A DNA stretch of 58,644 nucleotides from a virus, in IMG/VR virus record IMGVR_UViG_3300044714_000125, positions 1-58,644 of that record, one strand, 5' to 3'. Positions 2,698 to 40,279 of this stretch are shown piece after piece. Position 1 is the first letter of the stretch. Every line of letters starts with the position of its first letter. The translations under genes and the position numbers were made by a program. Below the pieces are notes generated by a model. The model saw nothing but the letters and a program-made list of their open reading frames with translations, was not told the origin of the DNA and ran no database searches.

Positions 2698-3326
2698 CAG
2701 TAAAACCCGCTCAACCCGGTAACGGCTTCGATTGCAATACCCCGCTCACCCCCGCCAGCGCCAAAGTCTTCCGCGACCAGGGAATGGAGTTTGCCATCCG
2801 CTACCTTCCCCGGACGCCGGCGCTGATCCCTGGTTGCCTTACCAAAGCGGAGAGGGATATCATCCTGGCGGCCGGTCTCGCATTGTCGGCCGTCCAGCAC
2901 TGCCCACTCCCTGGTTTTACCCCCTCTGGCGCCCTCGGGCTCGAATACGGCCAATACGCGGGCAAATACGGGGGTGAAATAGAACTCGGCATGTTTATGA
3001 ACATCTGGTTGGATCTCGAAGGGGTGGCCTCCGGGACGCCCGCACAGGACGTTATAGACTACTGTACGCAGTGGTTCGATCAGGTGCAGGCGGCAGACTT
3101 CGTTCCGGGGCTATATGTGGGATACGGGTCCGGCCTGACCCCGAAGCAGATTTATGACCTCCCATTTCAGCATTACTGGAAGGCGTATAACTATGACGAC
3201 GGGGTTCCGGAAAGGGGCTTCCAGCTGATACAGCACCCGGCCAAAGTACTCAGCGGGATCAGTTATGACCCAAATACCTGTGCCGCCGATCTGAAGGGCG
3301 ATATGCCGATTTTCCTTTTTCCATAG
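2694..3326 (+). CDS. Putative endolysin, DUF1906-type glycoside-hydrolase-like, 210 aa
   Basis: The start at 2694 overlaps the previous stop. The N-terminus GFDCNTPLTP followed by a stretch ending IRYLPR matches the first strand and helix of the DUF1906 (Rv2525c-like) TIM-barrel family, which is related to GH25 muramidases and common in phage lysins. An acidic strand typical of the barrel (MNIWLDLEG) lies near residue 105. The protein is a single domain with no signal peptide, so export would depend on a holin. It is the last gene of the lysis block and is followed by a terminator at 3358-3391. Peptidoglycan as substrate is inferred from family and context. Confidence 0.75.
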   Translation: MTVKPAQPGNGFDCNTPLTPASAKVFRDQGMEFAIRYLPRTPALIPGCLTKAERDIILAAGLALSAVQHCPLPGFTPSGALGLEYGQYAGKYGGEIELGMFMNIWLDLEGVASGTPAQDVIDYCTQWFDQVQAADFVPGLYVGYGSGLTPKQIYDLPFQHYWKAYNYDDGVPERGFQLIQHPAKVLSGISYDPNTCAADLKGDMPIFLFP

Positions 3327-25664: not shown

Positions 25665-25699
25665 ATTGAAAGTCACAAAAGTTGCCTAAATTCGACACA

Positions 25700-26899
25700 A
25701 TGGTGAAACTATCCTCCATAAAGCCGAACCCCAACAATCCCCGCTTGATCAAAGATGATCGGTTCGTGAAACTGGTAAAATCGATACAGGAGTTTCCTAA
25801 AATGATGGAATTGAGGCCAATGGTCATAGACAAGACCAGGATCATCATCGGAGGAAACATGAGGCTCAAGGCGCTGCGGGAGCTCGGCTATAAGGAAATA
25901 CCGAACGAATGGATCAAAAAGGCCGAAGACCTTACCGAGGAAGAGAGGCGCCGATTCATCATCGCCGATAATGTTTCCTTCGGAGAAAATGACTGGGAGG
26001 CCCTCGGCGCCGATTGGGATATCAAGGAATTGGAAGAGTGGGGGCTCGACATCAACGGGTTCGCCAAGCCCGACGAATCCCTGGAGGAAGATGATTTTGA
26101 GAACAACGAGGAAATTGAGACCGATATCGTGCAGGGGGATTTGTTTGAGATAGGACCGCACCGGTTGCTATGCGGGGATAGTACCCAGATAATAGATATC
26201 GAAAATGTCACATGTGGGCAAATACCAGAGTTAGTATTTGCTGATCCGCCTTACGGTGTGGATATTGTTCAGGGCTCAAGCGTTGGTGGGGGCGGCCCCA
26301 CCAAATTCGGAGGGAAGATTGGGAAAACGGTAAAGAGTACAAAAGGATTTAATCGGGTTATAGGCGATAAAACAACGGATGCGGCGAAAAGATTCTATAA
26401 TGCATGCAAAAAATTAGCTTTCAATAATTTGATTATATGGGGCGGCAATTATTTTACCGACTTTCTTCCGCCTTCAATGTGCTGGATTGTTTGGTACAAA
26501 AAGAATACTGGCAATTTTGCTGACTTCGAAATGGCATGGACCTCTTTCAATCAGGCCGCAAAACTCTATGAATATCTTTGGAATGGTTTAAGCCGCGAAG
26601 GTGAACGTAGGCTGGAGCTAAAACGTCGGGCGCATCCTACGCAGAAAGCCGTCGGGGTTTGCGGGATGATATTCAATGATTTTCAATTTGAGCTATGCTT
26701 CGATGGTTTTGGTGGATCCGGCACTACAATGGTGGCTTGTCATGAAATGAAAAGACGTTGCGCAATGATCGAGATAGACCCTAAATATTGCCAAATCATC
26801 GTCGATCGCATGAGAAACCTCGATCCTTCGATAATTATCAAGAAAAATGGCGTATTTTTAGAAAATGCAGGGAAAAATCCCGATCAAGCAGGTAAATAG
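25700..26899 (+). CDS. ParB-like/DNA methyltransferase fusion, 399 aa
   Basis: The N-terminal 100 residues are a ParB/Srx-like domain (VKLSSIKPNPNNPR; IIGGNMRLKALRELGYKEIP). They are followed by a methylase with DPPYG (motif IV, about residue 183) and FGGSGTT near the end (motif I, SAM binding), so the motif order is the beta type of N6-adenine or N4-cytosine enzymes. ATG 25700 was preferred over TTG 25682. The fusion is common next to phage terminases and may mark DNA for packaging or shield it from restriction. Third DNA methylase in the window. Confidence 0.85.
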   Translation: MVKLSSIKPNPNNPRLIKDDRFVKLVKSIQEFPKMMELRPMVIDKTRIIIGGNMRLKALRELGYKEIPNEWIKKAEDLTEEERRRFIIADNVSFGENDWEALGADWDIKELEEWGLDINGFAKPDESLEEDDFENNEEIETDIVQGDLFEIGPHRLLCGDSTQIIDIENVTCGQIPELVFADPPYGVDIVQGSSVGGGGPTKFGGKIGKTVKSTKGFNRVIGDKTTDAAKRFYNACKKLAFNNLIIWGGNYFTDFLPPSMCWIVWYKKNTGNFADFEMAWTSFNQAAKLYEYLWNGLSREGERRLELKRRAHPTQKAVGVCGMIFNDFQFELCFDGFGGSGTTMVACHEMKRRCAMIEIDPKYCQIIVDRMRNLDPSIIIKKNGVFLENAGKNPDQAGK

Positions 26900-26905
26900 C
26901 AGGTA

Positions 26906-27256
26906 ATGGCTTATAAGAATCCTCCAAAAGAACACCAATTCAAAAAAGGGCAAAGCGGAAACCCCAAGGGCGCAGCCAGGAAACTTCCGGAACTTGATAT
27001 AATCATAGCCGAGGTAATGGGCGAAGAAAAGGAAGGGATAACTGCCGCACAGGCCATCCTTGCTGCAATGCGAGCCAAGGCCGCTAAAGGTGACGTACGG
27101 GCCGCTGAAATGCTCATGGACCGGGCCTATGGTAAGCCCAAGCAGCGAACGGAAGTCACTGGCCTGGATGGAGCCCCCATTCAAACCGACCTGACCATCA
27201 AGCAACACACGGTCGTATTCAAGAAATTTGGCGATGGAGATCATCCAAACGTTTAA
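26906..27256 (+). CDS. Terminase small subunit-like (DUF5681), 116 aa
   Basis: The N-terminus HQFKKGQSGNPKGAARK (residues 10-26) is the signature of DUF5681, a DNA-binding domain found as small terminase in many phages. The rest is helical (ITAAQAILAAMRAKAAKGDV), then AEMLMDRAYGKPKQ. It lies immediately before, and overlaps, the large terminase gene. It would recognise the packaging start site. Confidence 0.75.
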   Translation: MAYKNPPKEHQFKKGQSGNPKGAARKLPELDIIIAEVMGEEKEGITAAQAILAAMRAKAAKGDVRAAEMLMDRAYGKPKQRTEVTGLDGAPIQTDLTIKQHTVVFKKFGDGDHPNV

Positions 27257-28547
27257 TGAGGTCTATGAACCGGTTTTCACCTCCAGCGCCAGATATATCG
27301 ATGTATGGGGCGGCCGCGGGCGCGGGGGCTCTCACTTCGGAACTGAGTATTTTCTGCACCTGATCACCAAGCCGGACTATTTCCGCGGTTATTTCATCCG
27401 CCAAGCGTTCAAGGACATCCGGGATTCCCTGTTTCGAGATTTCAAGGATCGGATCATCGATAATCCAACCGTCAGATTGGAGGATTTCCACATCAATGAC
27501 AATGAGATGCGGATTCAATACAAACCCACCGGTAACATCATCAGCAGCAAGGGGGTTAAGGCGGATAATGAACGGACAGCCAAAATGAAGTCCCTGGCCG
27601 GCGCCACGCACGTCCTGATCGAAGAAGCGGATGAGGTTGGCGAAATGGACTTCGATCAGCTGGATTTATCGCTCAGGACCATCAAAAGCAGTCAGATACA
27701 GATCATCCGGATATTCAACCCGCCAGGGAAAACGCACTGGATATGGCGGGATTACGTGCTGACCGACGCGCGCCTGGTTGACGAAAAAGGGCAGATGATA
27801 AAAGGCTATTTCACCGCTCAGCCTAAAAAGGACGCCAACCTGATCAGCATGTTCTCCAATTACCATGATAACCGAATCAACCTGCAGGACTCCACGGTAG
27901 AGAAATTCGAGTCGTTCAAAGCTAAAAAGCCGGAATACTATTATACGATAATTAGAGGCTTAATAAGCGAGGGCATGCGCGGGAGGATATTCTCTGGCTG
28001 GAAATCGATAACCAACCAGGAATTCAACGAGGTTGAAGCACGGAGCATTTTTGGGCAGGACTTCGGGAACCCGTCGCCGGCGGCGTTGGTAGAGGCCAAA
28101 ATGGTGAATAATCGGATCTATGTGCGGGAGCAGAACTACCAGGGCATGACGGAGAAGCAATTGGCGCTGCTTTATTGCCGCCTGGGGCTGACCGAACAGG
28201 TGATCATCGCGGATTCGGCGGAGCCCATGGCCATCCACCACCTTAGGAACGGTTGGCGTTCGAATGAGCTGGCGGAAGGTGAAGCAAAGACTTATCCACA
28301 ATTGTTGAAAGGTTGGGCGATCTACCCGGCATTTAAAGGCCCCGGGTCGATCATCACCGGGATCAAGAAAGTGATGGACTTTGAAGTTTTCGTGACTGAA
28401 GAAAGTTCAAACATCTGGATGGAATTCCGGGAATACAGGTGGGCATTGGATCGCAATAAAAACCCCTTGGACGAACCGGAAGACGCTAATAATCACGCGT
28501 GTGACGCTATACGGATGATCATCGCCGGGAAGGGCCGCTATTACTAA
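27234..28547 (+). CDS. terL: Terminase large subunit, 437 aa
   Basis: Packaging motor of the Terminase_3 type. The ATPase has a P-loop-like GGRGRGGSHF (residues 26-35) and Walker B VLIEEADE (127-134). The C-terminal RNase H-like nuclease shows FGQDFG (near 270), IADSAEP (near 325) and NHACDAIRM (near 420), giving the Asp cluster. The P-loop lacks the usual Lys (GGS where GKS is expected). The start may be TTG 27228 or ATG 27234; both overlap the small subunit gene. Confidence 0.9.
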   Translation: MEIIQTFNEVYEPVFTSSARYIDVWGGRGRGGSHFGTEYFLHLITKPDYFRGYFIRQAFKDIRDSLFRDFKDRIIDNPTVRLEDFHINDNEMRIQYKPTGNIISSKGVKADNERTAKMKSLAGATHVLIEEADEVGEMDFDQLDLSLRTIKSSQIQIIRIFNPPGKTHWIWRDYVLTDARLVDEKGQMIKGYFTAQPKKDANLISMFSNYHDNRINLQDSTVEKFESFKAKKPEYYYTIIRGLISEGMRGRIFSGWKSITNQEFNEVEARSIFGQDFGNPSPAALVEAKMVNNRIYVREQNYQGMTEKQLALLYCRLGLTEQVIIADSAEPMAIHHLRNGWRSNELAEGEAKTYPQLLKGWAIYPAFKGPGSIITGIKKVMDFEVFVTEESSNIWMEFREYRWALDRNKNPLDEPEDANNHACDAIRMIIAGKGRYY

Positions 28548-28858: not shown

Positions 28859-28961
28859 GGGCCGAAAGTAAATTAAAATGCCAAAAAACACGGGCTTTTG
28901 TCTTTTTTGTCGCATTTACGATTTACCTTTACAACTCACAATTAAAAACTCAAAATTCAAC

Positions 28962-29585
28962 ATGGACAAAATGACCATTCACCGCGCACTCAGCGAGCTA
29001 AAGCTGATTGACGCCAAGATTGAAAAGGCCACGGCCCAGGTAAACCCGTCGGGCATTTATCAAAAAGGACGGCACATCAACGGCTCAATTCCCGAGGAAG
29101 ATTTCAAGACGCTGGCGCAATCCACCTACGATTCCTGTATTGATCTGATGGCCCGCAAAACTGCCATCAAATCGGCGATCGTTCAAAGTAACGGGCGAAC
29201 GACTGTGAAGATCGGCGACAAGGTGATGACCGTCGCGGACGCCATCACAGCCAAGGCCATCATCAAGTTCAAAAAGGCGTTCATCGCCAACCTAACGAAC
29301 CGGCATCGCGCCCAGGTGGCAGCATTGAATACCAACAACTCGGTGGTGATGCAGAACGCCCAAAAGCTACTGGAAGCCGCTATGGGGAAAGACAACACCA
29401 AAGTGACCAAAGAGGACGTCGAGGCCATCCGAAAGCCGTTCATCGACAACAACGAGTTTCATCTGTTCGATCCCCTGAAGATCGAAGACAAGATTAAGGT
29501 CCTGGAAAAAGAGGTCGGCGACTTCGAGGCGGATGTCGATGCAGTCCTTTCCGAATCTAATGCCGTAACATTCATAGAATTCTAA
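28962..29585 (+). CDS. Helical protein downstream of terminase, 207 aa
   Basis: The ATG at 28962 follows an A-rich leader; an upstream frame from 28878 lacks support. The protein is almost all helical (MTIHRALSELKLIDAKIEKA, then a Lys/Ala-rich middle) with a long C-terminal coiled coil (KIKVLEKEVGDFEADVDAV). Similar helical proteins in Firmicutes and Bacteroidota phages are annotated as hypothetical. Could be a scaffold-like or adaptor protein; uncertain. Confidence 0.55.
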   Translation: MDKMTIHRALSELKLIDAKIEKATAQVNPSGIYQKGRHINGSIPEEDFKTLAQSTYDSCIDLMARKTAIKSAIVQSNGRTTVKIGDKVMTVADAITAKAIIKFKKAFIANLTNRHRAQVAALNTNNSVVMQNAQKLLEAAMGKDNTKVTKEDVEAIRKPFIDNNEFHLFDPLKIEDKIKVLEKEVGDFEADVDAVLSESNAVTFIEF

Positions 29586-29947: not shown

Positions 29948-30253
29948 ATGAACTGTCTGAATTGTGGAGAACCACTTGAACAAACCCCTGGAAAGAAGGA
30001 GAAGCAGTTCTGCAATGTCTCCTGCCGGTCGAGCTTCCACCAAAAGAAAAAGCGGGCTGAAGCGAAGACCGCCCCCTTCCAGGAACGCGTAGTCGAGCAG
30101 AAGAAGACCGATCCGGTCACCCTGCCGCCGTCGCCTCGGCAACTAATCAGACGCGAGCCTCCGCCGGTAATGCCGGCCGGGTTGACTCCTTTGCAGCAGC
30201 AGGCCTGGAAGGCGAAACAGCGGAAAAAGTTACAGGAAAATCGACTCAAATGA
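29948..30253 (+). CDS. Small zinc-finger protein, 101 aa
   Basis: N-terminal CLNCGEPLEQTPGKKEKQFC (residues 3-22) followed by NVSCRSSFHQKKKRAEA carries four Cys in treble-clef spacing. The middle is a Pro-rich disordered linker and the C-terminus a basic helix. This type of short C2C2 protein is common in Bacteroidota phages. Overlaps the next gene by four bases. Confidence 0.65.
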   Translation: MNCLNCGEPLEQTPGKKEKQFCNVSCRSSFHQKKKRAEAKTAPFQERVVEQKKTDPVTLPPSPRQLIRREPPPVMPAGLTPLQQQAWKAKQRKKLQENRLK

Positions 30254-30663
30254 TAAAGGCAAGCGAATTGAGGATCGGCAACAAGATCAACGCCATTTCA
30301 TCGTTAGAGGGGGCCCCTGTTGGCATTATCGAGGTGATGGAAATATACCGCAATGGCGTTGATTCTACAAAGTACATGGAATATGCTCCGGATTATCCGT
30401 TTGGATACCCCTGCTATCCTTTTGAAGGGTTGGAGGGCATTCCCCTGACGCCGGAGATTCTCGAAAAGTGCGGGTTTGTATTCAATCACTATTGGCAAAG
30501 CAAGATGGTGGACCTTAGTCAGGACAAAGACGGATTTTTTCTTTGCGCCGAAGACCCTCATGAAGGAGATATCTATAGACTCAGCAAAGGATTCCATTTC
30601 TTCCACCAGCTGCAGAACCTTTTCTTCGCGCTGACCGGTGAGGAGCTAATTGTAAAGCTATGA
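30250..30663 (+). CDS. Conserved ELRIGN-family protein, 137 aa
   Basis: Begins with KASELRIGNKIN and contains GIPLTPEILEKCGF (residues about 62-75) and the end FFHQLQNLFFALTGEELIVK. These elements define a family found in many Bacteroidota phages. A clear paralogue is encoded on the other strand at 37131-37580 in this window. Function unknown; ATGA coupled to its neighbours. Confidence 0.7.
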   Translation: MIKASELRIGNKINAISSLEGAPVGIIEVMEIYRNGVDSTKYMEYAPDYPFGYPCYPFEGLEGIPLTPEILEKCGFVFNHYWQSKMVDLSQDKDGFFLCAEDPHEGDIYRLSKGFHFFHQLQNLFFALTGEELIVKL

Positions 30664-31288: not shown

Positions 31289-31513
31289 TCATACAAAGAC
31301 AAGAGCAACAAACCTGTGGACCTTTCGGGAAACAGCTTTGCGATTAATGGTCGGAAGTGAGAATTGTAAATATCCGTGAGGATCTTTGCTCAGTTTTAAA
31401 ATCCTCACCGACGACCTGTAATTTTCTCTGGGGAGAGACTTTATGCGGCCGTGAGAACTGATCATGTATTTGCCGTCCTGACCAGGAAAATCTTTCCAAA
31501 TTTCTTGTTCCAT
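31289..31513 (-). pseudogene. Truncated NUMOD4-type homing endonuclease fragment
   Basis: Residues EIWKDFPGQDGKYMISSHGR and the end KVHRFVALVFV match the NUMOD4 domain and the start of the HNH region. The frame stops where NPxxxxxVxHxN(G) and the rest of the nuclease should follow. Starts at ATG 31513 (MEQEIW...). It is a decayed selfish gene at the 3' end of the minus operon, related to the fuller copy at 38236-38598. Confidence 0.6.
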
Positions 31514-31623
31514 AAAAAAATAAGCCAGCATGCGATTGCGGCACACACTGACCTATTTTTGGCTAACTAATTAACCGGGTTCATCCGCAATATGTACCCG
31601 ATTATGATTGCCTTAAAGGTAAA

Positions 31624-32256
31624 CTATTTGCGTTTAAATCCACAGCTTAAAATATTCCAATCCGTCTCGCGACGCCGAACAATGTCTTCATGCTTTGATG
31701 ATGCGAAAAGCCTCCATCCCATCTTCCACATCCATTTTTGAAGCGAATCCAGGGTATAATAGTGAAGGTGTTCGTCCTTTTTTTTGTGACACCATGTCGC
31801 GAACTTTTCAATGCCTGGATAGAATGGAAGGCTGATGATCACCGTGGTGCATCTCATATCCTTTATAAACTGGGTGTTGGGGTAGTGCTCTAGCGAATCA
31901 AAAAAGCACGCAACATCGACGACAATGTTGATATCCTGGGTAAAATCACACCCCGCCGGCACCGGGACGCCGGAAATATCGTGTCCGTAGACGACCGGGA
32001 TCTGTTTCTTGGCGAACTTCATAAAAGCGCCGTTTCCGAAACCTATGTCCAGGATGGACTGGATCGGCCGCCCGTGCACCCCCGTGGCGAAAGCCAGCCG
32101 CATGCCCTGCAGGAGTTCGTTCTGTCGGGTATATTCCGGCGTGTCGTAGGTCGCGCAATAGTTTCCATCATACAAAAACGGCTGCGGATCGACCTGGTGG
32201 ATTACACCGTACCTGTCTGTCTTATATTCGGCTCCGTCAATCTTGAACTTTCTCAT
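31624..32256 (-). CDS. SAM-dependent methyltransferase, 210 aa
   Basis: Class I Rossmann methyltransferase: motif I ILDIGFGNGAF (about residues 68-78), VVYGHDIS (motif II), then DVACFFDSLEHYPN, the typical post-motif of Methyltransf_23 small-molecule or sugar methylases. No DNA motif IV is present, so the target is likely a sugar, lipid or metabolite. It is the last intact gene of a long minus-strand operon with glycosyltransferases, which supports a glycan role. Confidence 0.75.
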   Translation of the reverse strand: MRKFKIDGAEYKTDRYGVIHQVDPQPFLYDGNYCATYDTPEYTRQNELLQGMRLAFATGVHGRPIQSILDIGFGNGAFMKFAKKQIPVVYGHDISGVPVPAGCDFTQDINIVVDVACFFDSLEHYPNTQFIKDMRCTTVIISLPFYPGIEKFATWCHKKKDEHLHYYTLDSLQKWMWKMGWRLFASSKHEDIVRRRETDWNILSCGFKRK

Positions 32257-32432
32257 TGCAAATTGCCCTTTATTATGATCTGGATTAATTTATCTTCATC
32301 GCCTGCAAATTCGGTAAACTGACGAATCGCTTCCATAATGGAATCGGCTTTCGTTTTGAAATACCAGATTAAAGGCGCTGTATACCCATTAACCTCCAAA
32401 GTATCATGGTAATAAAAAAGGTATTCGTTCAT
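32253..32432 (-). CDS. Small hypothetical protein, 59 aa
   Basis: Start at 32432 overlaps the glycosyltransferase stop (ATGA) and its stop overlaps the methylase start. The sequence (YLFYYHDTLEVNGYTAPLIW) is strand-rich with a C-terminal helix. No family recognised. A similarly short neighbour is encoded at 33151-33399, between a methylase and this glycosyltransferase. Confidence 0.6.
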   Translation of the reverse strand: MNEYLFYYHDTLEVNGYTAPLIWYFKTKADSIMEAIRQFTEFAGDEDKLIQIIIKGNLQ

Positions 32433-33154
32433 ATTGAATGATCCCATTTTGTATACGTTCGACAATTTGTTTTCGTGCTCTTGTAGGCGCAATAGTGGTC
32501 TTTGCCAATCCCTTGCGCGATCGCTAACGCAATTCCCTGGTTGCAATACAAGGCCGTGCAACCGTGGATCATAACGGCCAATTCCAGGAAATCGGGCGTG
32601 TGCAGATGTGGAACTTCATCATCGCCGACAAGGGACCGGAATTCCTGCCAATCCGAGTCGAACCCCACGAAGTAGCCTTTATGCCGTCCATGATCCCACC
32701 AAGCCGTCTTCCAATCGAACGCGTTTTCCCTCCAACGCGGGGTCAGCGACCAAATCGTATATGGCTGCGAGAAGCTATGAAACCGGCTTTTCCATCCTTC
32801 GGTCCGGAGCCATGGCGTCCGCGGTGTGCAGCCTCTCAGATGCCAGTAATTAGCCATGCTCGCCATTATATGCCATCTTCCCCGCATCTTGCAGGCGCGC
32901 CATTCGTCCATGTTGACGTCATATTTGGCATCCGGGGGAAAGTTGTGGAACTGGGCTTTGCCATCGTCAACGCATGGGTCCACGGCAAACCCTTGGCTTT
33001 CGAGGAGGGGCTTAATGCTGCTGTAAAGGCTGCCAAATCCAGGCGGATAGAACGATTCTTTGACGATGACCCGGTCCACCCCCATCGCCCTAAAGATCGG
33101 GATCGAGAACACCAGGTCCCCCCCACCCCCACTCGATATGGCTGTTCTGCTCAT
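32429..33154 (-). CDS. GT-B glycosyltransferase-like protein (family 9 like), 241 aa
   Basis: The N-terminal motif GGGGDLVFSIPIFRAMG (residues 8-24) matches the GD-hh-xxP-h-x-ALR start of heptosyltransferase-type (GT9) enzymes. The C-terminal part has FVGFDSDWQEF, then LAVMIHGCTALYCNQGIALA resembling the acceptor/donor Gly-rich region. Shorter than typical GT9 proteins (about 340), so probably a compact form. Predicted to transfer a sugar to a glycan; substrate unknown. ATGA overlaps on both sides. Confidence 0.65.
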   Translation of the reverse strand: MSRTAISSGGGGDLVFSIPIFRAMGVDRVIVKESFYPPGFGSLYSSIKPLLESQGFAVDPCVDDGKAQFHNFPPDAKYDVNMDEWRACKMRGRWHIMASMANYWHLRGCTPRTPWLRTEGWKSRFHSFSQPYTIWSLTPRWRENAFDWKTAWWDHGRHKGYFVGFDSDWQEFRSLVGDDEVPHLHTPDFLELAVMIHGCTALYCNQGIALAIAQGIGKDHYCAYKSTKTNCRTYTKWDHSI

Positions 33155-33399
33155 TCGGTCACTGGATTATCTCTGTAAACATGGATTTTGTAGCTTTCTT
33201 CGCCGAGGAAGTGAAAAAACTTCATCACGTTGTCGCAGGTGCCGATGACCTGGTAATCCGCCCATCCTCGATATGATGAGCCTTCCGGGATAAACACATG
33301 CACATTTGTCTCAGCGCCTTCCTCCAATGTGTCCTTATTGGCAAGGAAAGTCTCAAACCGTGCAACTTGGTCACGCCAAATGGAGAATCTTATTGTCAT
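33151..33399 (-). CDS. Small hypothetical protein, 82 aa
   Basis: Acidic alpha/beta protein (MTIRFSIWRDQVARFETFLA ... GTCDNVMKFFHFLGEESYKI). No recognised domain. ATGA overlaps with the genes on both sides. Confidence 0.6.
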   Translation of the reverse strand: MTIRFSIWRDQVARFETFLANKDTLEEGAETNVHVFIPEGSSYRGWADYQVIGTCDNVMKFFHFLGEESYKIHVYRDNPVTE

Positions 33400-33932
33400 A
33401 AATGAGCGATTAAAATTCCGTCAATAATAGGGTTTGCGGCCATGGTGAACTTGTACGCCGGGTTGATCTGAAGGATGGCGTTTTTAACGTCGTTCTTCGA
33501 ATAGCCGACGCGATCCCGGTAGAAGATGTGCCAATCATCCACAATCAGCGTATGGGTCTTTATAGGGTGCCGGCCGATCTGTTCCAACTCTTTCAACAGC
33601 GGGAACGGATTGGCGCCGGGCTCTTCGTTTTCAAAGAATTGCCAGTGTGCATCTAAAAAAACCGTCATCGGTTCATGGATGTCCTTGATCATCTCCCAAA
33701 GCATCTCGGCGCTGTCCCCTGTGAAGCACTTGATGTCCAGGTGCGTGTTCTTCGTCAGCCAGAACCGGTTGGAGCAGAAGATCGCGGCCTCCGGGTCGAT
33801 GTCAATGGTGCGGATGTGCTCGAAGCCGGCATCGAGGGCGGCGGCAACGGCATCGCTACGATATGTTCCCGTCTCCACAAAATAGGCGTTCAGGTATTTG
33901 GCCAGGAGGTTATATGAAGGGGGCAAACTCAT
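33396..33932 (-). CDS. Class I methyltransferase-like protein, 178 aa
   Basis: YFVETGTYRSDAVAAALDAG (residues 17-36) is a motif I variant, HIRTIDIDPEA motif II, and TVFLDAHW a motif IV-like strand; later TLIVDDWHIF. The pattern fits TylF/cephalosporin-hydroxylase-type SAM enzymes that act on sugars or natural products. It has no DNA-methylase motifs. Part of the sugar-related operon. Confidence 0.7.
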   Translation of the reverse strand: MSLPPSYNLLAKYLNAYFVETGTYRSDAVAAALDAGFEHIRTIDIDPEAAIFCSNRFWLTKNTHLDIKCFTGDSAEMLWEMIKDIHEPMTVFLDAHWQFFENEEPGANPFPLLKELEQIGRHPIKTHTLIVDDWHIFYRDRVGYSKNDVKNAILQINPAYKFTMAANPIIDGILIAHL

Positions 33933-34177
33933 GTTACTTTGATTAAAGTTTTATCGTCCATTGCTTTACGAATCCAGCGCATAAAGGTCAGTGCCTTTTC
34001 AGTGGCCGGAAGCGTTGTTGATTTCACGTCTTCCAGCGGCACCGGGAAAGTGAAGAATCGCTTTCCATTGCTGACCAGAAAATAGTAAAAAACGCCATTG
34101 CGAAAATGGTCAAACTCAACGGAGTTGCCTTTCACTAATGCTTTGATTTCGAGCGGCAATTCTGCCATATCAGTCAT
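33929..34177 (-). CDS. Small hypothetical protein, 82 aa
   Basis: Start at 34177 overlaps the upstream membrane gene's stop (ATGA). Beta-strand-rich start with LPLEIKALVKGNSVEFDHFR and an amphipathic C-terminal helix (LTFMRWIRKAMDDKT). No family recognised. Confidence 0.6.
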   Translation of the reverse strand: MTDMAELPLEIKALVKGNSVEFDHFRNGVFYYFLVSNGKRFFTFPVPLEDVKSTTLPATEKALTFMRWIRKAMDDKTLIKVT

Positions 34178-34353
34178 TTGCAGGGACAATTTAAGCGGAT
34201 GAAGAAATGCCAAGCCAACAGTGAAAAAGCCATAATGCCGATCAAAATCAGGCATAATTTAAAGGAAGGCCAGAATAAGCCGCCGTCCTCTTTGATAAGA
34301 TGCGGATGGGATGGGATAATATCATCATCCTCAATTCCCGGAAGTTTGCTCAT
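34174..34353 (-). CDS. Small single-pass membrane protein, 59 aa
   Basis: Acidic/polar N-terminus, one membrane helix (FKLCLILIGIMAFSLLAWHF, about residues 32-51) and a short C-terminal Cys-containing tail (NCPCK). Overlaps both neighbours by ATGA, which supports the call for this short gene. Confidence 0.6.
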   Translation of the reverse strand: MSKLPGIEDDDIIPSHPHLIKEDGGLFWPSFKLCLILIGIMAFSLLAWHFFIRLNCPCK

Positions 34354-34601
34354 ACCTTCACCATTTTTTCAAATTCTTCAATCGTTTCGACCTTGAACAT
34401 CGCCGCCCAGAAGTACACCCAGAAGTAGGCTCCATCGTATAAAACCGCTATTTCCCCCTTCCAGTAAGCGTTCCCGTCGTTCTCGTAGCCCTCCCGCTTT
34501 AGGTAGGCACTGTTCATCGGGCGGGGCAGCGGATCGGGAGGTTCATGGAGATATTCCACAAGGACAGGTGTTTCGCCGCGATATTCTATCTTACGCCTCA
34601 T
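34350..34601 (-). CDS. Small hypothetical protein, 83 aa
   Basis: Start at 34601 overlaps the upstream stop (ATGA). Sequence MRRKIEYRGETPVLVEYLHE and WVYFWAAMFKVETIEEFEK suggests a beta-hairpin with an amphipathic end. No family recognised. Confidence 0.6.
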   Translation of the reverse strand: MRRKIEYRGETPVLVEYLHEPPDPLPRPMNSAYLKREGYENDGNAYWKGEIAVLYDGAYFWVYFWAAMFKVETIEEFEKMVKV

Positions 34602-34972
34602 AACAGGGTAAGCATTTGCAGTCCTTTGAAGATGGAGCCAGTAAGCTGAATGTCCACCGTCGCCGGCTCCCCTTTGCAACATCGTAAATATTGAGCCCAT
34701 ACGACGCCGTTCTTTATGTAGCCATACTGGACTGTAAAAAGATTAGGATTGCCATATTGCTTTAATTCACTGGATTGGCGTTCGATTATGTCTGGTCGTT
34801 GATATTGACCCTCCAACAAGGTACCGAAGGCATACTTAATCAAATGGCGATCCCTTACGCCATGCTGATTGACGCAGCCCCTACAAGCACACGGCCCTCC
34901 AGCGGCGCAAAATCGAAGAAACTCGATTGGCAATCCGTCAAGATATTGCTTCATTTTCTCGTGGTGGTTCAT
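34598..34972 (-). CDS. Zinc-binding hypothetical protein, 124 aa
   Basis: GGPCACRGCVNQ (residues about 25-36) gives a cluster of Cys, followed by DRHLIKYAFGTLLEGQYQ and a C-terminal beta region with another Cys pair (RCCKGE). The motif arrangement suggests a metal-binding fold that is common among Bacteroidota phage hypotheticals. Role unknown. Confidence 0.6.
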   Translation of the reverse strand: MNHHEKMKQYLDGLPIEFLRFCAAGGPCACRGCVNQHGVRDRHLIKYAFGTLLEGQYQRPDIIERQSSELKQYGNPNLFTVQYGYIKNGVVWAQYLRCCKGEPATVDIQLTGSIFKGLQMLTLL

Positions 34973-35262
34973 TTTGAATATTCGATTATGGTCCTATATG
35001 GATTGATCCGTGTTTTTTTTCCATCTTCATCGATTGTATAAATGCACATTCCCACTAATATTTTATCTATCTTAAGTTGATCTTCAACCGTTCTTTCTTT
35101 TCCGGGCGGATGCTGGGCGAGAAATTCCAGATCGGGGGGCAATTTATTCCAATGCTCTTTTTTCTTTTTCTCTCTGCTATTACCGGCCCAGATCACAAGG
35201 CACAAAAATGAGCACAATAAAAAAAGTAATACAATTATAGCGGGCAGCAATATGGTTTTCAT
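34969..35262 (-). CDS. Single-pass membrane protein, 97 aa
   Basis: Start at 35262 after the overlap with the glycosyltransferase. N-terminal membrane helix (LLPAIIVLLFLLCSFLCLVI, about residues 5-24), then a basic region (NSREKKKKEHW) and a cytoplasmic or periplasmic part of 60 residues. Possible membrane partner for the glycosyltransferases; unproven. Confidence 0.6.
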   Translation of the reverse strand: MKTILLPAIIVLLFLLCSFLCLVIWAGNSREKKKKEHWNKLPPDLEFLAQHPPGKERTVEDQLKIDKILVGMCIYTIDEDGKKTRINPYRTIIEYSK

Positions 35263-36119
35263 AGCTTGCTTTTTAGCTGATAAACATCTTTGACCCAATC
35301 GGCTATCTGTTTCGGGGTGCAGAAAAAACACTCCTTGAACGTACTGGATCCGATCAATTCCGGATCGCACCAGGTGCGCGGCAGCTTCGGCAAGCTCTTT
35401 TCGGGATAAAACATAACAGAGGGCCGCGCCAATAATCCGGACAGAATCCCGAGCCCTGAGGGGAAATAGAACCCGTAGGTGAGGCGCTTCATCATTTCGA
35501 TGACGTAGCCCAGCGGTTTGCCAATCGTTGAAATAAAGGGGACGTGGTCGGCGACCATGAGCGCCCTGATCTCATCGGCGACGCCAATATCCCAGTCGGC
35601 CCCAATTTGCACAAAGGTTGCCTCCGGAATATATTGATGCATTTCCCAAATCAGATCGAACCAACCCGTCGACCCCCAAAAACCCCATGCCCGCGCTGTA
35701 CTATATGCACTTGCATAAATCCCGATGTACGGCCCTTCCGGGAAGTCCGTTTTTACCACTTCCTCCCACTCTGCCGTCTGAAAGGGCAAAGAATAGCTGG
35801 TTGGCAGGTCCGGCAGGAAGGTCTCGATCCGCTGACCGGATTCCAGGTACTCGTTGGCCGACAGGAAGAATTCCTGTTCCTGGATCAGCCGCCAGTACTT
35901 CTTTTGCCGCTGGATGTTCCGCGGGCCGACGACCGAGTAGGGCAAGCCGGGGACGTATTCGCAGGAGGCGGCGATCTGCGGCAGGAGGTCGAATATCTGC
36001 TTTCCCCGTTGGGGACTGCCCGCATGAATCTGAAAGTTAAAGCGTTCTTTCGCGTTCACGAGCTTTTGCAATACCCACGCTGCGTCACCTAAACCCTGGC
36101 AAGTTTTAATGATTCTCAT
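35259..36119 (-). CDS. GT-B glycosyltransferase-like protein (family 9 like), 286 aa
   Basis: GLGDAAWVLQKL (residues 9-20) at the start, the central GIYASAYSTARAWGFWG followed by a helix, TFVQIGADWD (the IG..D strand) and late PSGLGILSGLLARPSVMF give the layout of heptosyltransferase-type GT-B enzymes. The first 100 residues form the acceptor domain. Together with the 32429 enzyme this makes two GT9-like proteins in one operon, probably acting in sequence on the same glycan. Confidence 0.7.
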   Translation of the reverse strand: MRIIKTCQGLGDAAWVLQKLVNAKERFNFQIHAGSPQRGKQIFDLLPQIAASCEYVPGLPYSVVGPRNIQRQKKYWRLIQEQEFFLSANEYLESGQRIETFLPDLPTSYSLPFQTAEWEEVVKTDFPEGPYIGIYASAYSTARAWGFWGSTGWFDLIWEMHQYIPEATFVQIGADWDIGVADEIRALMVADHVPFISTIGKPLGYVIEMMKRLTYGFYFPSGLGILSGLLARPSVMFYPEKSLPKLPRTWCDPELIGSSTFKECFFCTPKQIADWVKDVYQLKSKL

Positions 36120-36672
36120 GGTCTTTTCTGTACTTTTCTAAAATGCCGCTTGCTGTAAGGTCTTTTATTTCCCTCCCCATTACAATAACTTCTCTCATAT
36201 CTCGGTCCGTCCAGTCAACTTCCCTGTTACCCTTGAAAATACGAAAGCCATGGGGGACGTTCATTTTACAATTGGGGGCATATTTGGAGTCTTCGGTATT
36301 GTAAAAAACGGCTTCTATCGCCGTCTTCGGATTTGATGCGTGGGCTTTCGTGTTAACTATAAAAACGTCGTCGTTCTGGCTGGCGGCAGGCATGCCTTCA
36401 AAATCTGACCCTTTCAGGGAAGGTTTGCCGTGTTCGAGCTCAACCAGCTTTTTGCATATTTGATCATAGCGTTCGTGCAAATCCTTGATCTGCTCATAAA
36501 CCTTATCGAATCTTGCCGCTATTTCGTCAAATGGATCATGCACGGGTCGGGCTTTTACCATGCCAGTTTCTAATCGGAATAACATTTCATTATTAGCCCT
36601 TTCCTGAATTGAATGAGGGACATTTGAATTTGTGATCAGGGTCACAAGTTGATCATTTGTTAGCGGTTCCAT
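36106..36672 (-). CDS. Coiled-coil protein, 188 aa
   Basis: Residues about 50-85 form a coiled coil (RFDKVYEQIKDLHERYDQIC). The C-terminal half (about 110-188) is alpha/beta with AIEAVFYNTEDSKYAPN and NREVDWTDRDMREVI. No family recognised. Overlaps the downstream glycosyltransferase gene by 14 bases. Confidence 0.55.
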   Translation of the reverse strand: MEPLTNDQLVTLITNSNVPHSIQERANNEMLFRLETGMVKARPVHDPFDEIAARFDKVYEQIKDLHERYDQICKKLVELEHGKPSLKGSDFEGMPAASQNDDVFIVNTKAHASNPKTAIEAVFYNTEDSKYAPNCKMNVPHGFRIFKGNREVDWTDRDMREVIVMGREIKDLTASGILEKYRKDHENH

Positions 36673-36901
36673 TATCTACAGTTTTTGTTTTCTCCTTAAA
36701 AATTCGTTTGCCGGCCGCCCAGACTCCCCAGCCAATCAGCACCCCCGGCCAGAACAGCGCCACCCCGATATTGCGGACGTCGAAGTAGGCATCCTTTCTG
36801 ATCTCCAAAGGATTATCTCTTTCTTCCGCCGAACAGATTAAGTGTAGCGCAATAGCGCATGTGATGGCGTAGAGGACGGCGGCGAGGATGGGCCAGATCA
36901 T
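36653..36901 (-). CDS. Small membrane protein, 82 aa
   Basis: Start at 36901 (ATGA with the upstream gene). Two membrane helices: WPILAAVLYAITCAIALHLI and NIGVALFWPGVLIGWGVWAA, separated by a charged loop, with a basic C-terminal tail (AGKRIFKEKTKT). Function unknown. Confidence 0.6.
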   Translation of the reverse strand: MIWPILAAVLYAITCAIALHLICSAEERDNPLEIRKDAYFDVRNIGVALFWPGVLIGWGVWAAGKRIFKEKTKTVDNGTANK

Positions 36902-37134
36902 AGCGTTTCCTCCTGCGTTTCTGCCCACGGGCTTATTTTGAATGGAATGCGGCCTAAAAGCCTGACACCTTCATATATCCAAAAATCCGCGTCGCAACCT
37001 TCCTTCGCGCTGGGCTTGATTTTAAGGGTCAGGCCGTCTTTCTCAAATTGATGACCGTGAATCATCTCGTGGCCCTTGAAATTGAATTCAACGCCGGTTC
37101 CGTCGAGCTTTATTGCATAAACGTTGATATTCAT
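36898..37134 (-). CDS. Small hypothetical protein, 78 aa
   Basis: Beta-rich protein (MNINVYAIKLDGTGVEFNFK ... LTLKIKPSAKEGCDADFWIY). No family recognised. ATGA overlaps with both neighbours. Confidence 0.6.
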   Translation of the reverse strand: MNINVYAIKLDGTGVEFNFKGHEMIHGHQFEKDGLTLKIKPSAKEGCDADFWIYEGVRLLGRIPFKISPWAETQEETL

Positions 37135-37580
37135 AGATTCACCTCCAATTCTTTACCCCTCAAACAATAAGTGATATTTTGCAGTTGGTGTAAATATTCC
37201 AGCGGGATATAGCCGAATTCGTTAAGAAACCATCTTCCATCGTCTTCATGCCAGACGGTCATATATTCCCGGTGATGCTCGGTATCATCATAGGTCAGAG
37301 TATAATCCATCGGCCCATATCCGGGAGAAGGATTTTCCAATGCTGGCTCAAATCCGCACCTCTTGAGAATGTCTATGGTCAGAGGAACGCCGAAAACATT
37401 CTCCTGAGCCGTAAAAAAAGGAACATTAACCTGTTGATCAGATACAAATTCGTTACCGTCAATAAAATCTTCCATTTCTTCCAGACAAATACCTTCACGG
37501 TGAATCCACAGGACCGGTAGGATGCGGCCCTTATTGTCGCGGACCATATTGCCAATTCTCAATTCCGACATTTGTATCAT
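37131..37580 (-). CDS. ELRIGN-family protein, paralogue, 149 aa
   Basis: Shares SELRIGNMVRDNKGR at the start, GVPLTIDILKRCGF in the middle and EYLHQLQNITYCLRGKELEV at the end with the gene at 30250-30663. Sequences differ enough that they are old duplicates or independent acquisitions. This copy belongs to the glycan-gene operon and overlaps both neighbours by ATGA. Function of the family unknown. Confidence 0.7.
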   Translation of the reverse strand: MIQMSELRIGNMVRDNKGRILPVLWIHREGICLEEMEDFIDGNEFVSDQQVNVPFFTAQENVFGVPLTIDILKRCGFEPALENPSPGYGPMDYTLTYDDTEHHREYMTVWHEDDGRWFLNEFGYIPLEYLHQLQNITYCLRGKELEVNL

Positions 37581-38239
37581 GCCTCATATTTTGACTTGTG
37601 ACTGTAAAGTTTATCAAAAAGCGGCACCATCTTTTCCACCACCCCGTCCGCCGTGCTAAACCATGACCGTCCTTTTAGCTCCTTTGCCGTGAAGGGAGCC
37701 CGGAACTTGCAGTCCTCCATCTGGACGCCGGTGACGCGCGCATACATGGCATATGCGCTGTGAATACAAATTCCAAACGGGTCAGCCCAGCGAAAGACGC
37801 GCATCTTTTGGAGAATTGCCCGCTGCATCAAAATGGGCCGGTGAATATCGAAGTTATTGCCTTTCGGGGCTATTCTGAGCGTATTGGCGACCGTCTTTTT
37901 GTAGTTTGAGTTCCGGGATAGGCTATAGAACTTATTAAGGAGGGTCATGTCCCAGGCATATTGTTCCTGCCAGGGATATAGGAGGTAGTGATCGTCGTGG
38001 GCCACAATAAACTCATCCGCCGGGCATAAGAGCAACTTTTCGAACATATTCCGTTCCCGCTGGTGCGGCTCTGGCCGATCCTTCGCCGGGATGTGCTCAA
38101 CCCCTTGAATCCAGTCCGGCAAGCCCCCGATAACGTAAATTTTCTCCGGCTTAATATAAAGCTCAAATCCTCTCAAAGCATATCGTAAATCGAGATATCC
38201 ATTGGGCGAAGCCGATGCAAGGGGAATGGCGATAGTCAT
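37577..38239 (-). CDS. Glycosyltransferase/phosphotransferase-like protein (Stealth-like), 220 aa
   Basis: The start at 38239 forms an ATGA overlap with the upstream NUMOD4 gene. LRYALRGFELYIKPEKIYVI followed by GGLPDWIQGVEHIP, a later LLCPADEFIVAHDDHYLLYP strand and the basic helix around NYKKTVANTLRIAPKG resemble the conserved regions of Stealth-type sugar phosphotransferases (with D-D residues). Likely acts on a polysaccharide. The match is by pattern and could also be a GT-A glycosyltransferase. Confidence 0.55.
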   Translation of the reverse strand: MTIAIPLASASPNGYLDLRYALRGFELYIKPEKIYVIGGLPDWIQGVEHIPAKDRPEPHQRERNMFEKLLLCPADEFIVAHDDHYLLYPWQEQYAWDMTLLNKFYSLSRNSNYKKTVANTLRIAPKGNNFDIHRPILMQRAILQKMRVFRWADPFGICIHSAYAMYARVTGVQMEDCKFRAPFTAKELKGRSWFSTADGVVEKMVPLFDKLYSHKSKYEA

Positions 38240-38598
38240 GCTATTTCCCATTTTGCGCATTTCTTACTCGACCATTCAAGATTTGAGGCCTTTACGTTAA
38301 GCGGATTCCCATCTAAATGCCTGATGAATTGATAATTATATGGATTGGGAAGGAATGCGCCAGCGACCAAGTAAGCAACGGAGAAATATTTCGGACCTCC
38401 CAATGTTCTGAAACCTATCGAAATTATTTGTTTCCCCCTTCGCGGCTTGAGAATCTTTTCCCTCAAAATTCTGGGGGGTTTTCCTGTTTGAGCGATATAT
38501 CGTTCAGTAGATTTGACGCCTCCCAAATTACTCACCTGATAGGCATATTGAAAATCGTCAACATGAACCGGATGCCAGATTTCCGAATTTATCTCCAT
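38236..38598 (-). CDS. NUMOD4/HNH homing endonuclease-like, 120 aa
   Basis: Start at 38598. Residues SEIWHPVHVDDFQYAYQVSN followed by LGGVKSTERY are the NUMOD4 domain. The later YLVAGAFLPNPYNYQFIRHLD followed by GNPLNVKASNLEWSS is the HNH_3-type nuclease core (H/N/N). It is the first gene of the minus operon. Homing endonucleases of this type often travel with surrounding genes and may have brought or spread this operon. Confidence 0.75.
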   Translation of the reverse strand: MEINSEIWHPVHVDDFQYAYQVSNLGGVKSTERYIAQTGKPPRILREKILKPRRGKQIISIGFRTLGGPKYFSVAYLVAGAFLPNPYNYQFIRHLDGNPLNVKASNLEWSSKKCAKWEIA

Positions 38599-38702: not shown

Positions 38703-38817
38703 GGAATCGCCTAAGAATCAAAAGACTAAAGCAGCCAAGAAAAAAATCCCCGTTGTCCAAGCCTATCAGGACCGCTTATCCCTCCGACTGAAAAAGCCAA
38801 TTGTGCATGGGAAATAG
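38701..38817 (+). CDS. Small basic protein before the portal, 38 aa
   Basis: GTG start at 38701 gives a Lys-rich peptide (KNQKTKAAKKKIPVVQAYQD, then RLSLRLKKPIV) overlapping the portal start by 11 bases. If the promoter at 38672-38700 is right, the GTG would lie upstream of the transcription start, which argues against it. Recorded with low confidence; alternatively a part of the leader. Confidence 0.35.
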   Translation: MESPKNQKTKAAKKKIPVVQAYQDRLSLRLKKPIVHGK

Positions 38818-40279
38818 CCTCGCCATAGCCAGCCAGAAACTTATTCGCGGGCTCTCCACGAAATGGATTGGCGACCCCTACATTGCGGAAGCGGCTGTCC
38901 TGGTTCCCTCCCAGTTCCGGGACAACACGGGCGGTCCAAACTGGTTCTTTGGCCCCAATGGGATCGATTACCGGTTCATCTTCGACGGGGCGACATCAGC
39001 CACCAAAGCCTACAACAAATGCCCGCCGCTGGCTGCCATCATCAACAGAAAGGCCCAGGCGTACATCAACGGACGGACCGAGATCATCAACACCCAGGGA
39101 AAAGCCAATGGCAAGCCGGCAACCAATGAGAAGGCAGTAAAGATCATGGCCTTGATGAACAATCCCAACCCGCTTTGTTCCGCCAATGACTTCGAGGCCC
39201 AAATGTTCCTGTATATCCAGTTGTTTGGATATTGCCCCATTCTACCCATATACCCGGCCGGTTTCGAGGTCCTGAAAGACTTATCTGAGGCGACGTCCTT
39301 ATGGATCATTCCTCCATACATGCTTGATTGGAAAGAGAATAAGACGAGCATGTGGTATAATGCGAAAACCCAAGCTGATATCGTCCCGAAGCTGATTATC
39401 AAGTACAAAGACCTCAAAACCGAGATCGACATCAACGATCTTGTCATCTTCAAGGACTTCACCCCCAGTTTCGAAAGTTTCGTCTTCCCGGGCTCCCGCA
39501 TTCGTCCCCTGGCGATGCCGATCAACAACATTATAGGGGCATACGAGGCCCGGGGAGAGCTGATCAATTACGCCGGTAGCCAGGGCATCCTTACCCCAGA
39601 AATGGACTCCATGGGCGCCATACCGCTCCGGGAATCGGAAAAGGATCAGATACAAGCCGACTTCAAGAGACAATATGGGATCAAGTCCGGACAGTCCCGG
39701 TATATCATCTCCCCGGCGCCGATGAAGTGGCAGGGAATGGGTCGCGCGACCAAAGAACTTGAACTCTTTTCGGAAGTCGTCGACGACATCATGCGGATAT
39801 GCGATAGCTACAATTATCCCTCTCCGCTGCTGAATACTGAAAAAGGGCCGAACGTCGCAAATACGCAGGAGTACAAAAAAATGGTCTATGAGGAGGCAAT
39901 TATCCCCGAAAGCCTCAGCATTTACGCCCAGTGGAACAAGGCTTTCAAACTCGATGATCAGCCGATGAAGATCCAAAAGACCTACGATCACTTGCCCATC
40001 TTGCAGCAGGACCAGGTTCTGGAGGGGCAGGCTCGGCTACAAATGAATCAAGCGCTTGAAATAGAATGGAGAAACAATAACATCACCTTGAATAGATGGA
40101 GGGCCATAAATGGCGAGGAGCCCACCGATGACGGGGATATTTACTATTATCAAACTCAAGGCAAAACATCACTCCTTGATCAAGCGCCAGAGCCAGCTAT
40201 TCATGAACCTCAATACGAACCCGGAGCTCCCCCTGCAAAATATTTCAGTCGAAACGGCAAATCAAAAATCTTCAACTAA
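38807..40279 (+). CDS. Phage portal protein, 490 aa
   Basis: Forms the dodecameric ring at the packaging vertex. The sequence has the HK97-type portal layout: NKCPPLAAIINRKAQAYING (residues about 69-88), a PLAMPINNIIGAYEARGELI region (about 227-246), then PLLNTEKGPNVANTQEYKKM (about 344-363) and a C-terminal part ending with ILQQDQVLEGQARLQMNQAL. The start ATG 38807 was chosen over TTG 38801. First large gene of the virion operon, directly before protease and capsid. Confidence 0.85.
   Translation: MGNSLAIASQKLIRGLSTKWIGDPYIAEAAVLVPSQFRDNTGGPNWFFGPNGIDYRFIFDGATSATKAYNKCPPLAAIINRKAQAYINGRTEIINTQGKANGKPATNEKAVKIMALMNNPNPLCSANDFEAQMFLYIQLFGYCPILPIYPAGFEVLKDLSEATSLWIIPPYMLDWKENKTSMWYNAKTQADIVPKLIIKYKDLKTEIDINDLVIFKDFTPSFESFVFPGSRIRPLAMPINNIIGAYEARGELINYAGSQGILTPEMDSMGAIPLRESEKDQIQADFKRQYGIKSGQSRYIISPAPMKWQGMGRATKELELFSEVVDDIMRICDSYNYPSPLLNTEKGPNVANTQEYKKMVYEEAIIPESLSIYAQWNKAFKLDDQPMKIQKTYDHLPILQQDQVLEGQARLQMNQALEIEWRNNNITLNRWRAINGEEPTDDGDIYYYQTQGKTSLLDQAPEPAIHEPQYEPGAPPAKYFSRNGKSKIFN

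What the first reader, a model, noticed from the sequence alone, without database searches (positions are those of the whole stretch)
31289..38598. Glycosyltransferase/methyltransferase operon between terminase and portal
A minus-strand operon of 17 genes, plus a truncated NUMOD4 remnant at its 3' end, interrupts the conserved terminase-portal order. It carries two GT9-like and one Stealth-like sugar enzyme, two small-molecule type SAM methylases, several small membrane and zinc proteins, and a homing endonuclease at its promoter-proximal end. It could modify host surface glycans (blocking re-infection), decorate the virion, or make a modified sugar or base.
Basis: partly seen in the sequence, partly recalled or inferred. 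Interest (0 to 1): 0.75.

Follow-up and report, generated by a model that had tools for sequence, protein, structure and literature searches.

The report
Phage sugar-coating and methylating gene cassette
A soil phage of Bacteroidota bacteria, and all of its relatives that could be checked, keeps a compact set of three sugar-transferring and two methylating enzymes beside its DNA-packaging genes, which most likely builds a capped sugar chain on the virus particle or on the host surface.

Summary
A minus-strand operon of 17 ORFs (31624-38598, 14 of 16 junctions being 4-bp overlaps) plus a decayed NUMOD4/HNH remnant lies between terminase and portal. It is not decayed. A five-enzyme core (Stealth-like G02, GT9-like G07, methyltransferase G13, GT9-like G15, methyltransferase G17) keeps the same order in all nine related contigs long enough to show it; the small ORFs and homing endonucleases between them vary. 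Predicted structures put G07 (C-terminal half) and G15 (whole) closest to GT9 heptosyltransferases. Eleven of 15 G02 relatives match Stealth_CR2, below the curated cut-off. Compact versions lie upstream of terminase in distant phages, including a prophage in a Paraflavitalea (Chitinophagaceae) genome. Cyanophage S-SM2 holds the trio MT-transferase-MT in the same order inside its published 'LPS' cluster. G02 or G17 relatives also sit inside head/tail operons of Mycobacterium, Streptomyces and Pseudomonas phages. Best reading: a cassette that builds and O-methylates a short glycan. A virion-protein acceptor is slightly favoured over host surface glycan; a modified DNA base is unlikely. The acceptor is not shown. 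It is a new variant of a known kind, phage-encoded glycosylation.

The parts
38236..38598 (-). G01: free-standing NUMOD4-HNH homing endonuclease, inserted between the conserved leader and G02
   Evidence: NUMOD4 E=2e-8, HNH_3 E=2e-4 below cut-off, phrog_59; leader alignment shows the insertion
37577..38239 (-). G02: Stealth-like transferase (phrog_7999), core enzyme 1
   Evidence: phrog_7999 E=9e-18; Stealth_CR2 in 11 of 15 family members, below curated cut-off; D89-D90 invariant
37131..37580 (-). G03: small protein, paralogue of 30250-30663, accessory
   Evidence: 28% identity to 30250-30663; no family
36898..37134 (-). G04: 78-aa ORF, accessory
   Evidence: ORF only; no relative found
36653..36901 (-). 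G05: small protein with two hydrophobic stretches, conserved within the lineage
   Evidence: 46-83% identity in relatives; dN/dS 0.14-0.21
36106..36672 (-). G06: 188-aa protein, partly conserved, accessory
   Evidence: Partial matches in L002, L003, L008
35259..36119 (-). G07: GT9-like GT-B glycosyltransferase, core enzyme 2
   Evidence: Model: six best matches are GT9 enzymes, Z 12.5-14.9; the profile matches a host GT9 protein; a relative reaches PF01075 at E=0.013, below cut-off
34969..35262 (-). G08: small protein with one hydrophobic stretch, accessory
   Evidence: Sequence
34598..34972 (-). G09: CxCxxC protein, accessory
   Evidence: Sequence; no family
34350..34601 (-). G10: 82-aa protein, conserved within the lineage
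   Evidence: 43-83% identity in relatives
34174..34353 (-). G11: 59-aa protein with one hydrophobic stretch, accessory
   Evidence: ORF
33929..34177 (-). G12: 82-aa ORF, accessory, one match in L036
   Evidence: 36% in L036
33396..33932 (-). G13: class I, probably metal-dependent O-methyltransferase, core enzyme 3
   Evidence: Profile best PDB match CmcI E=0.054; homologous to cyanophage S-SCSM1_131 and S-SM2_194; E20, G22, D132, D133 invariant
33151..33399 (-). G14: 82-aa ORF, accessory
   Evidence: ORF
32429..33154 (-). G15: short GT9-like GT-B glycosyltransferase, core enzyme 4, most divergent allele
   Evidence: Model pLDDT 84, pTM 0.86; 3tov Z 14.8, 1psw 14.1, TibC 13.6, WaaC 13.4
32253..32432 (-). 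G16: 59-aa ORF, accessory
   Evidence: ORF
31624..32256 (-). G17: Methyltransf_23 / phrog_6564 methyltransferase, core enzyme 5
   Evidence: PF13489 E=5.7e-8 over cut-off; phrog_6564 E=4e-15
31289..31546 (-). G18: truncated NUMOD4 endonuclease remnant
   Evidence: NUMOD4 E=1.1e-12; a longer NUMOD4-HNH homologue, 62% identical, lies at the same place in L005

Best explanation
A phage-borne glycan assembly and capping cassette. G02 (Stealth-like) transfers a sugar or a sugar-1-phosphate, the two GT9-like enzymes G07 and G15 add further sugars from host-supplied nucleotide sugars, and G13 and G17 O-methylate the product, giving a short methylated oligosaccharide. The acceptor is most likely one of the phage's own virion proteins; a host surface glycan is the main alternative. 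Small ORFs and homing endonucleases between the enzymes are mobile filler. Shown here: enzyme folds and families, conserved order, purifying selection, phage-specific distribution, recurring linkage to packaging and structural genes. Inferred: catalytic activity, order of steps, donor sugars, acceptor.
For: Five enzymes in the same order in nine contigs of the lineage; compact 4-5 gene versions next to terminase or head genes in distant phages L037, L038, L044 and prophage L050. GT9 fold for G07 and G15. Stealth_CR2 in the G02 family. MT-transferase-MT trio in the same order in a cyanophage sugar cluster. G17 relatives with a GxGD partner inside the head-tail operon of Pseudomonas phages and a G02 relative between major tail protein and head-tail adaptor in TurkishDelight, near a double GT4 glycosyltransferase; a G02 relative three genes before terminase in Fionnbharth. 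Mycobacteriophage capsid and tail-tube glycosylation by phage glycosyltransferases is reported (PMC12363180, PMC11256854). Only 1 of 394 genomes of the Paraflavitalea family has a close G07, and it is the prophage.
Against: In the window lineage the cassette is on the opposite strand to the structural genes, so co-expression with virion genes is not implied. G02 relatives in Gaia, OneUp and Cece lie away from structural genes. No acceptor motif enrichment in virion proteins. G07 and G15 lack the DxGxxH motif of canonical GT9. The N-terminal half of the G07 model is poor. G05, with two hydrophobic stretches, could point to a membrane-linked, host-surface role.
Confidence: 0.42

Rival explanations
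1. Host-surface modification. The same five enzymes alter host LPS, capsule or other surface glycan during infection or lysogeny, blocking superinfection or readsorption of progeny.
For: The trio lies in cyanophage 'LPS' clusters, which are interpreted as cell-surface modification (PMC9602691, PMC3037559). The cassette has its own strand and leader, separate from the structural genes. G05 may be a membrane protein. It is also present in a prophage (L050).
Against: No polymerase, flippase, undecaprenyl-linked transferase or gtrABC-type multi-TM protein was recognised; in L038, L044 and L050 the cassette is co-directional with terminase, so probably late; related genes recur inside head-tail operons.
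Confidence: 0.33
2. DNA modification. The glycosyltransferases and methyltransferases act on a modified base of the phage DNA.
For: Phage glycosyltransferases that act on DNA exist (T-even phages, from general knowledge); the genome also carries DNA methylases.
Against: No thymidylate-synthase-like, hydroxymethylase or other base-hypermodification gene among 20 larger left-arm ORFs. The methyltransferases relate to glycan-cluster enzymes, not DNA methylases. GT9 enzymes act on LPS or protein (TibC).
Confidence: 0.06
3. No single function: a hypervariable cargo region kept by homing endonucleases, in which enzymes are passengers.
For: Homing endonucleases or remnants lie in or beside the block in several members at different positions; many small ORFs are unique to one phage.
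Against: Same five-enzyme order across phages with MCPs only 53% identical; dN/dS 0.04-0.31; no homing endonuclease detected inside the core cassettes of L037 and L044.
Confidence: 0.07

Closest known systems
Cyanophage 'LPS' gene clusters (S-SM2, S-SCSM1; PMC3037559, PMC9602691)
   Same: G13-type methyltransferase, a transferase and G17-type methyltransferase in the same order in S-SM2; phage-borne glycan genes
   Different: Cyanophage clusters also hold epimerases, nucleotidyltransferases and kinases and lie near tRNA genes; here only transferases and methyltransferases are present, beside packaging genes
Mycobacteriophage virion glycosylation (Che8 gp110, Corndog gp38; Freeman et al. 2023 as cited in PMC12363180)
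   Same: Self-encoded glycosyltransferases modify capsid and tail tube; Weiservirinae carry a G02 relative three genes before terminase
   Different: Homology of Che8 gp110 or Corndog gp38 to the enzymes here was not tested; no glycan shown here; methyltransferases are part of the set here
GT9 heptosyltransferases (WaaC, WaaF, TibC)
   Same: GT-B fold, N-terminal GxGD aspartate
   Different: Shorter (241 and 286 aa); canonical C-terminal DxGxxH motif replaced by PSGLxI or NQGxAL; no ADP-heptose use implied
Stealth proteins (PF11380 and partners)
   Same: CR2 region similarity, DD motif
   Different: Only about 225 aa; only CR2 detected and below the curated cut-off
gtrABC seroconversion cassettes
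   Same: Phage-borne glycosyltransferase cassette
   Different: No GtrA flippase, GtrB or multi-TM GtrC recognised; the glycosyltransferases here are predicted soluble

Membership tests
GT9 (PF01075) for G07 | GT9/heptosyltransferase fold | tested here: met
   Best six structural matches are GT9, Z 12.5-14.9; C-terminal domain only is well modelled
GT9 (PF01075) for G07 | C-terminal DxGxxH nucleotide-binding motif | tested here: not met
   Aligned residues are PSGLxI
GT9 (PF01075) for G07 | Score over Pfam cut-off | tested here: not met
   No match for G07; relative in L050 15.2 bits against cut-off 22
GT9 for G15 | Full-length GT-B fold of GT9 type | tested here: met
   3tov Z 14.8 over 220 residues, 1psw 14.1, WaaC 13.4, next unrelated group 9.6 apart from NDH-complex chains
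GT9 for G15 | Pfam PF01075 match | tested here: not met
   0 of 11 members match
Stealth (PF11380) | CR2 over curated cut-off | tested here: not met
   Best 35.3 bits (L044) against cut-off 39.4; 11 of 15 members match below cut-off
Stealth (PF11380) | Sugar-phosphate transferase activity | not testable with these tools
   Needs enzymology
Methyltransf_23 for G17 | Pfam cut-off and SAM motif | tested here: met
   33.1 bits against cut-off 27; DxGxGxG invariant
CmcI / metal-dependent O-methyltransferase for G13 | Sequence family match | tested here: inconclusive
   CmcI E=0.054; no Pfam match for G13 or its L037 relative; acidic residues conserved
Virion glycosylation system | Glycan on virion protein | not testable with these tools
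   Needs MS of virions
gtrABC seroconversion cassette | GtrA/GtrB/GtrC membrane proteins | tested here: inconclusive
   No such Pfam matches among the ten larger cassette ORFs scanned; the small ORFs were not scanned one by one

The most novel reading that the evidence does not exclude
A lineage of Bacteroidota (Chitinophagaceae) phages, and by convergence several unrelated phage groups, carry a dedicated virion-glycan cassette that builds and O-methylates an oligosaccharide on capsid or tail proteins, with one transferase (G15) swapped between phages to change the coat.
Probability: 0.35. Interest if true: 0.72.

Novelty: new variant of a known kind. Interest (0 to 1): 0.5.

Why it matters
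Phage virion glycosylation has been shown in mycobacteriophages. If this cassette decorates virions, self-made methylated glycan coats would extend to Bacteroidota phages and would be linked genetically to packaging genes, giving a marker to find such phages. If it acts on the host surface, it is a compact superinfection-exclusion module unlike gtrABC. Either way it assigns a testable role to protein families that are now unannotated: phrog_7999, the G07 and G15 families, and phrog_6564 methyltransferases in structural operons.

Tried and rejected
Megablast of the region against annotated phages: no match. tblastn of G07 and of a G15 relative against annotated phages: no match. PDB sequence-profile searches: nothing convincing for G02, G07 or G15. 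Profile-profile comparison of the G07, G15 and Detrevirus gp11 families with each other: not significant, so the GT9-likeness of gp11 rests on its GxGD motif only. The idea that S-SM2_195 is an orthologue of G15: not detected by HMM. Bacteroidota promoter motif TAnnTTTG: not enriched and no exact match at the cassette's leader, so no promoter is claimed. Bacteroidota O-glycosylation motif in virion proteins: no enrichment. Allele swapping as a cassette-specific trait: G15 diverges most, but portal and terminase are also mosaic, so it is not specific. Search for Stealth_CR2 in the window genome and 14 control genomes rang nowhere, so it was uninformative. Decay of the block in relatives: rejected, except that the G15 copy of contigs L013/L014 has an in-frame stop near its start in a metagenome assembly. 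Literature: the Freeman et al. 2023 paper itself is not held; no paper was found on such a cassette in Chitinophagaceae phages.

Full report
Observation. The window is a 58.6-kb viral contig. Between the terminase large subunit (27228-28547) and the portal (38801-40279) there is a run of 17 minus-strand ORFs, 31624-38598, and a truncated NUMOD4 ORF, 31289-31546. After start correction, 14 of 16 junctions are 4-bp overlaps and the other two overlap by 20 and 14 bp, so this looks like one translationally coupled operon. Five small + strand ORFs lie between terminase and the block. In Polaribacter phage Freya_1 terminase and portal are separated by a single small ORF.

Conservation. Scans of viral contigs with the portal, G02, G07 and G15 families brought in about a dozen contigs of the same lineage. 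In each contig long enough to show it (L002, L003, L004, L005, L006, L008, L013, L014, L029) five genes recur in the same order: G02, G07, G13, G15, G17. L014 ends inside G15 and so shows four of the five. Only two small genes (G05, G10) recur with them in most contigs; the other small ORFs are unique or patchy. MCPs among these phages are as little as 53% identical. Pairwise dN/dS is 0.04-0.31 where dS is not saturated. The one sign of decay is an in-frame stop near the start of G15 in L013/L014.

Distant cassettes. L038 has G02-G07-G15-G17 directly before terminase. L044 has G07, an unrelated methyltransferase, G15, G17 and G02, with 4-bp overlaps, then terminase and portal. L037 has G02-G07-G13-G15 beside genes that look like head-completion genes. 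L050, inside a 4.27-Mb contig of the Paraflavitalea pollutisoli genome, has G07-G15-G17-G02 and then terminase, portal, a MuF-like gene and a protease: a prophage. A 62.6-kb contig binned as Chitinophagaceae carries the same block as L008. Hosts are therefore probably Chitinophagaceae. A search of 394 genomes of the Paraflavitalea family found only that prophage as a close G07 homologue, plus two weak matches; the one scanned, L055, is an ordinary GT9 protein. The cassette is a phage item, not a common host glycan locus.

Enzymes. G07: the AlphaFold model has a well-predicted C-terminal domain and a poor N-terminal half; the six best structural matches are GT9 enzymes, Z 12.5-14.9. G15: pLDDT 84, pTM 0.86; best matches are GT9 Veillonella 3tov Z 14.8, heptosyltransferase II Z 14.1, TibC 13.6 and WaaC 13.4 over about 205-226 residues, then a drop to 9.6, apart from NDH-complex chains at 12.5-14.3. 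Both keep the N-terminal GxGD, which in WaaC holds the catalytic aspartate (recalled, not tested), but the C-terminal DxGxxH motif is lost: PSGLxI in G07 and NQGxAL in G15 (by position, not by a significant alignment). So they work like GT9 enzymes but are not canonical members, and donor sugars cannot be read off. G02: Stealth_CR2 is matched in 11 of 15 family members, best E=1.5e-8, always below the curated cut-off; D89-D90 are invariant. Stealth enzymes are sugar-phosphate transferases (recalled), which is why a sugar-1-phosphate step is proposed. G17: Methyltransf_23 over cut-off. G13: weakly CmcI-like (E=0.054) with invariant acidic residues that fit a metal-dependent O-methyltransferase (inference).

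Guilt by association. In cyanophage S-SM2 the neighbours 194-195-196 are a G13 homologue, a GxGD transferase-like protein and a G17 homologue, in that order and orientation, inside a run of epimerases, kinases, nucleotidyltransferases and glycosyltransferases, which Sullivan et al. call an LPS cluster of unknown use (PMC3037559). S-SCSM1 has a G13 homologue in a similar cluster. This ties the methyltransferases to glycans rather than to nucleic acid.

Acceptor. For the virion: G17 relatives with a GxGD partner lie inside the head-tail operon of Pseudomonas phages PAJU2, IME307, FBPa47 and Psp6. A G02 relative lies between major tail protein and head-tail adaptor in TurkishDelight, two genes after a double GT4 glycosyltransferase, and another three genes before terminase in Fionnbharth-type phages. 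The distant cassettes sit at terminase. Capsid and tail-tube glycosylation is established in mycobacteriophages. Against: the cassette is on the opposite strand in the window lineage; G02 relatives of Gaia, OneUp and Cece lie elsewhere; no sequon enrichment was seen. The host-surface reading is nearly as likely. DNA modification is disfavoured because no base-hypermodification gene was found among 20 left-arm ORFs.

Mobile elements. G01 (NUMOD4-HNH) sits between the leader conserved in L002, L003 and L008 and the start of G02, so it is an insertion. G18 is a decayed form of an endonuclease that L005 holds in longer form at the same place. They explain part of the block's size variation, not its enzymes.

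Mosaicism. Window and L008 share 97% of the MCP and 87% of G13 but only 41% of G15. L002 and L008 share 93% of G15 but 61% of G13. Alleles of single enzymes are swapped, as in surface-glycan loci, though portal and terminase are mosaic too.

Verdict. A real, conserved, selected glycan cassette whose parts belong to known enzyme classes; new as a compact five-enzyme module linked to packaging genes; acceptor unproven.

Noticed in passing
L061:4178-5570, L060:4139-5555, L063:3678-5070, L064:3642-5037: Pseudomonas phages (Detrevirus, Psp6) carry a G17-family methyltransferase preceded by an unannotated 275-aa GxGD protein inside the head-tail operon.
   Followed up: partly
L059:2119-5702: Streptomyces phage TurkishDelight has a double GT4 glycosyltransferase and a Stealth-like protein interleaved with capsid, major tail and head-tail adaptor genes.
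   Followed up: partly
L057:4602-6259: Mycobacterium phage Gaia has a homing endonuclease followed by an overlapping pair of Stealth-like protein and Methyltransf_24.
   Followed up: no
window 27228-28547: The window's terminase is only 40-47% identical to that of relatives, although the next gene (28878-29585) is 97% identical to L048 and the MCP 94-97% to L002 and L008: terminase appears swapped.
   Followed up: no
window 25682-26899: ParB_N domain fused to an N6_N4 DNA methylase just upstream of terminase.
   Followed up: no
window 2610-3326: Rv2525c-like glycoside hydrolase domain at the left end, possibly a lysis or wall enzyme.
   Followed up: no
window 30250-30663 and 37131-37580: Paralogous small proteins (28% identity), one on each side of and inside the block, with copies in most relatives.
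   Followed up: no
L044:317-907: A methyltransferase of another family occupies the G13 slot in the distant cassette, suggesting that a methylation step is kept although the enzyme is replaced.
   Followed up: partly
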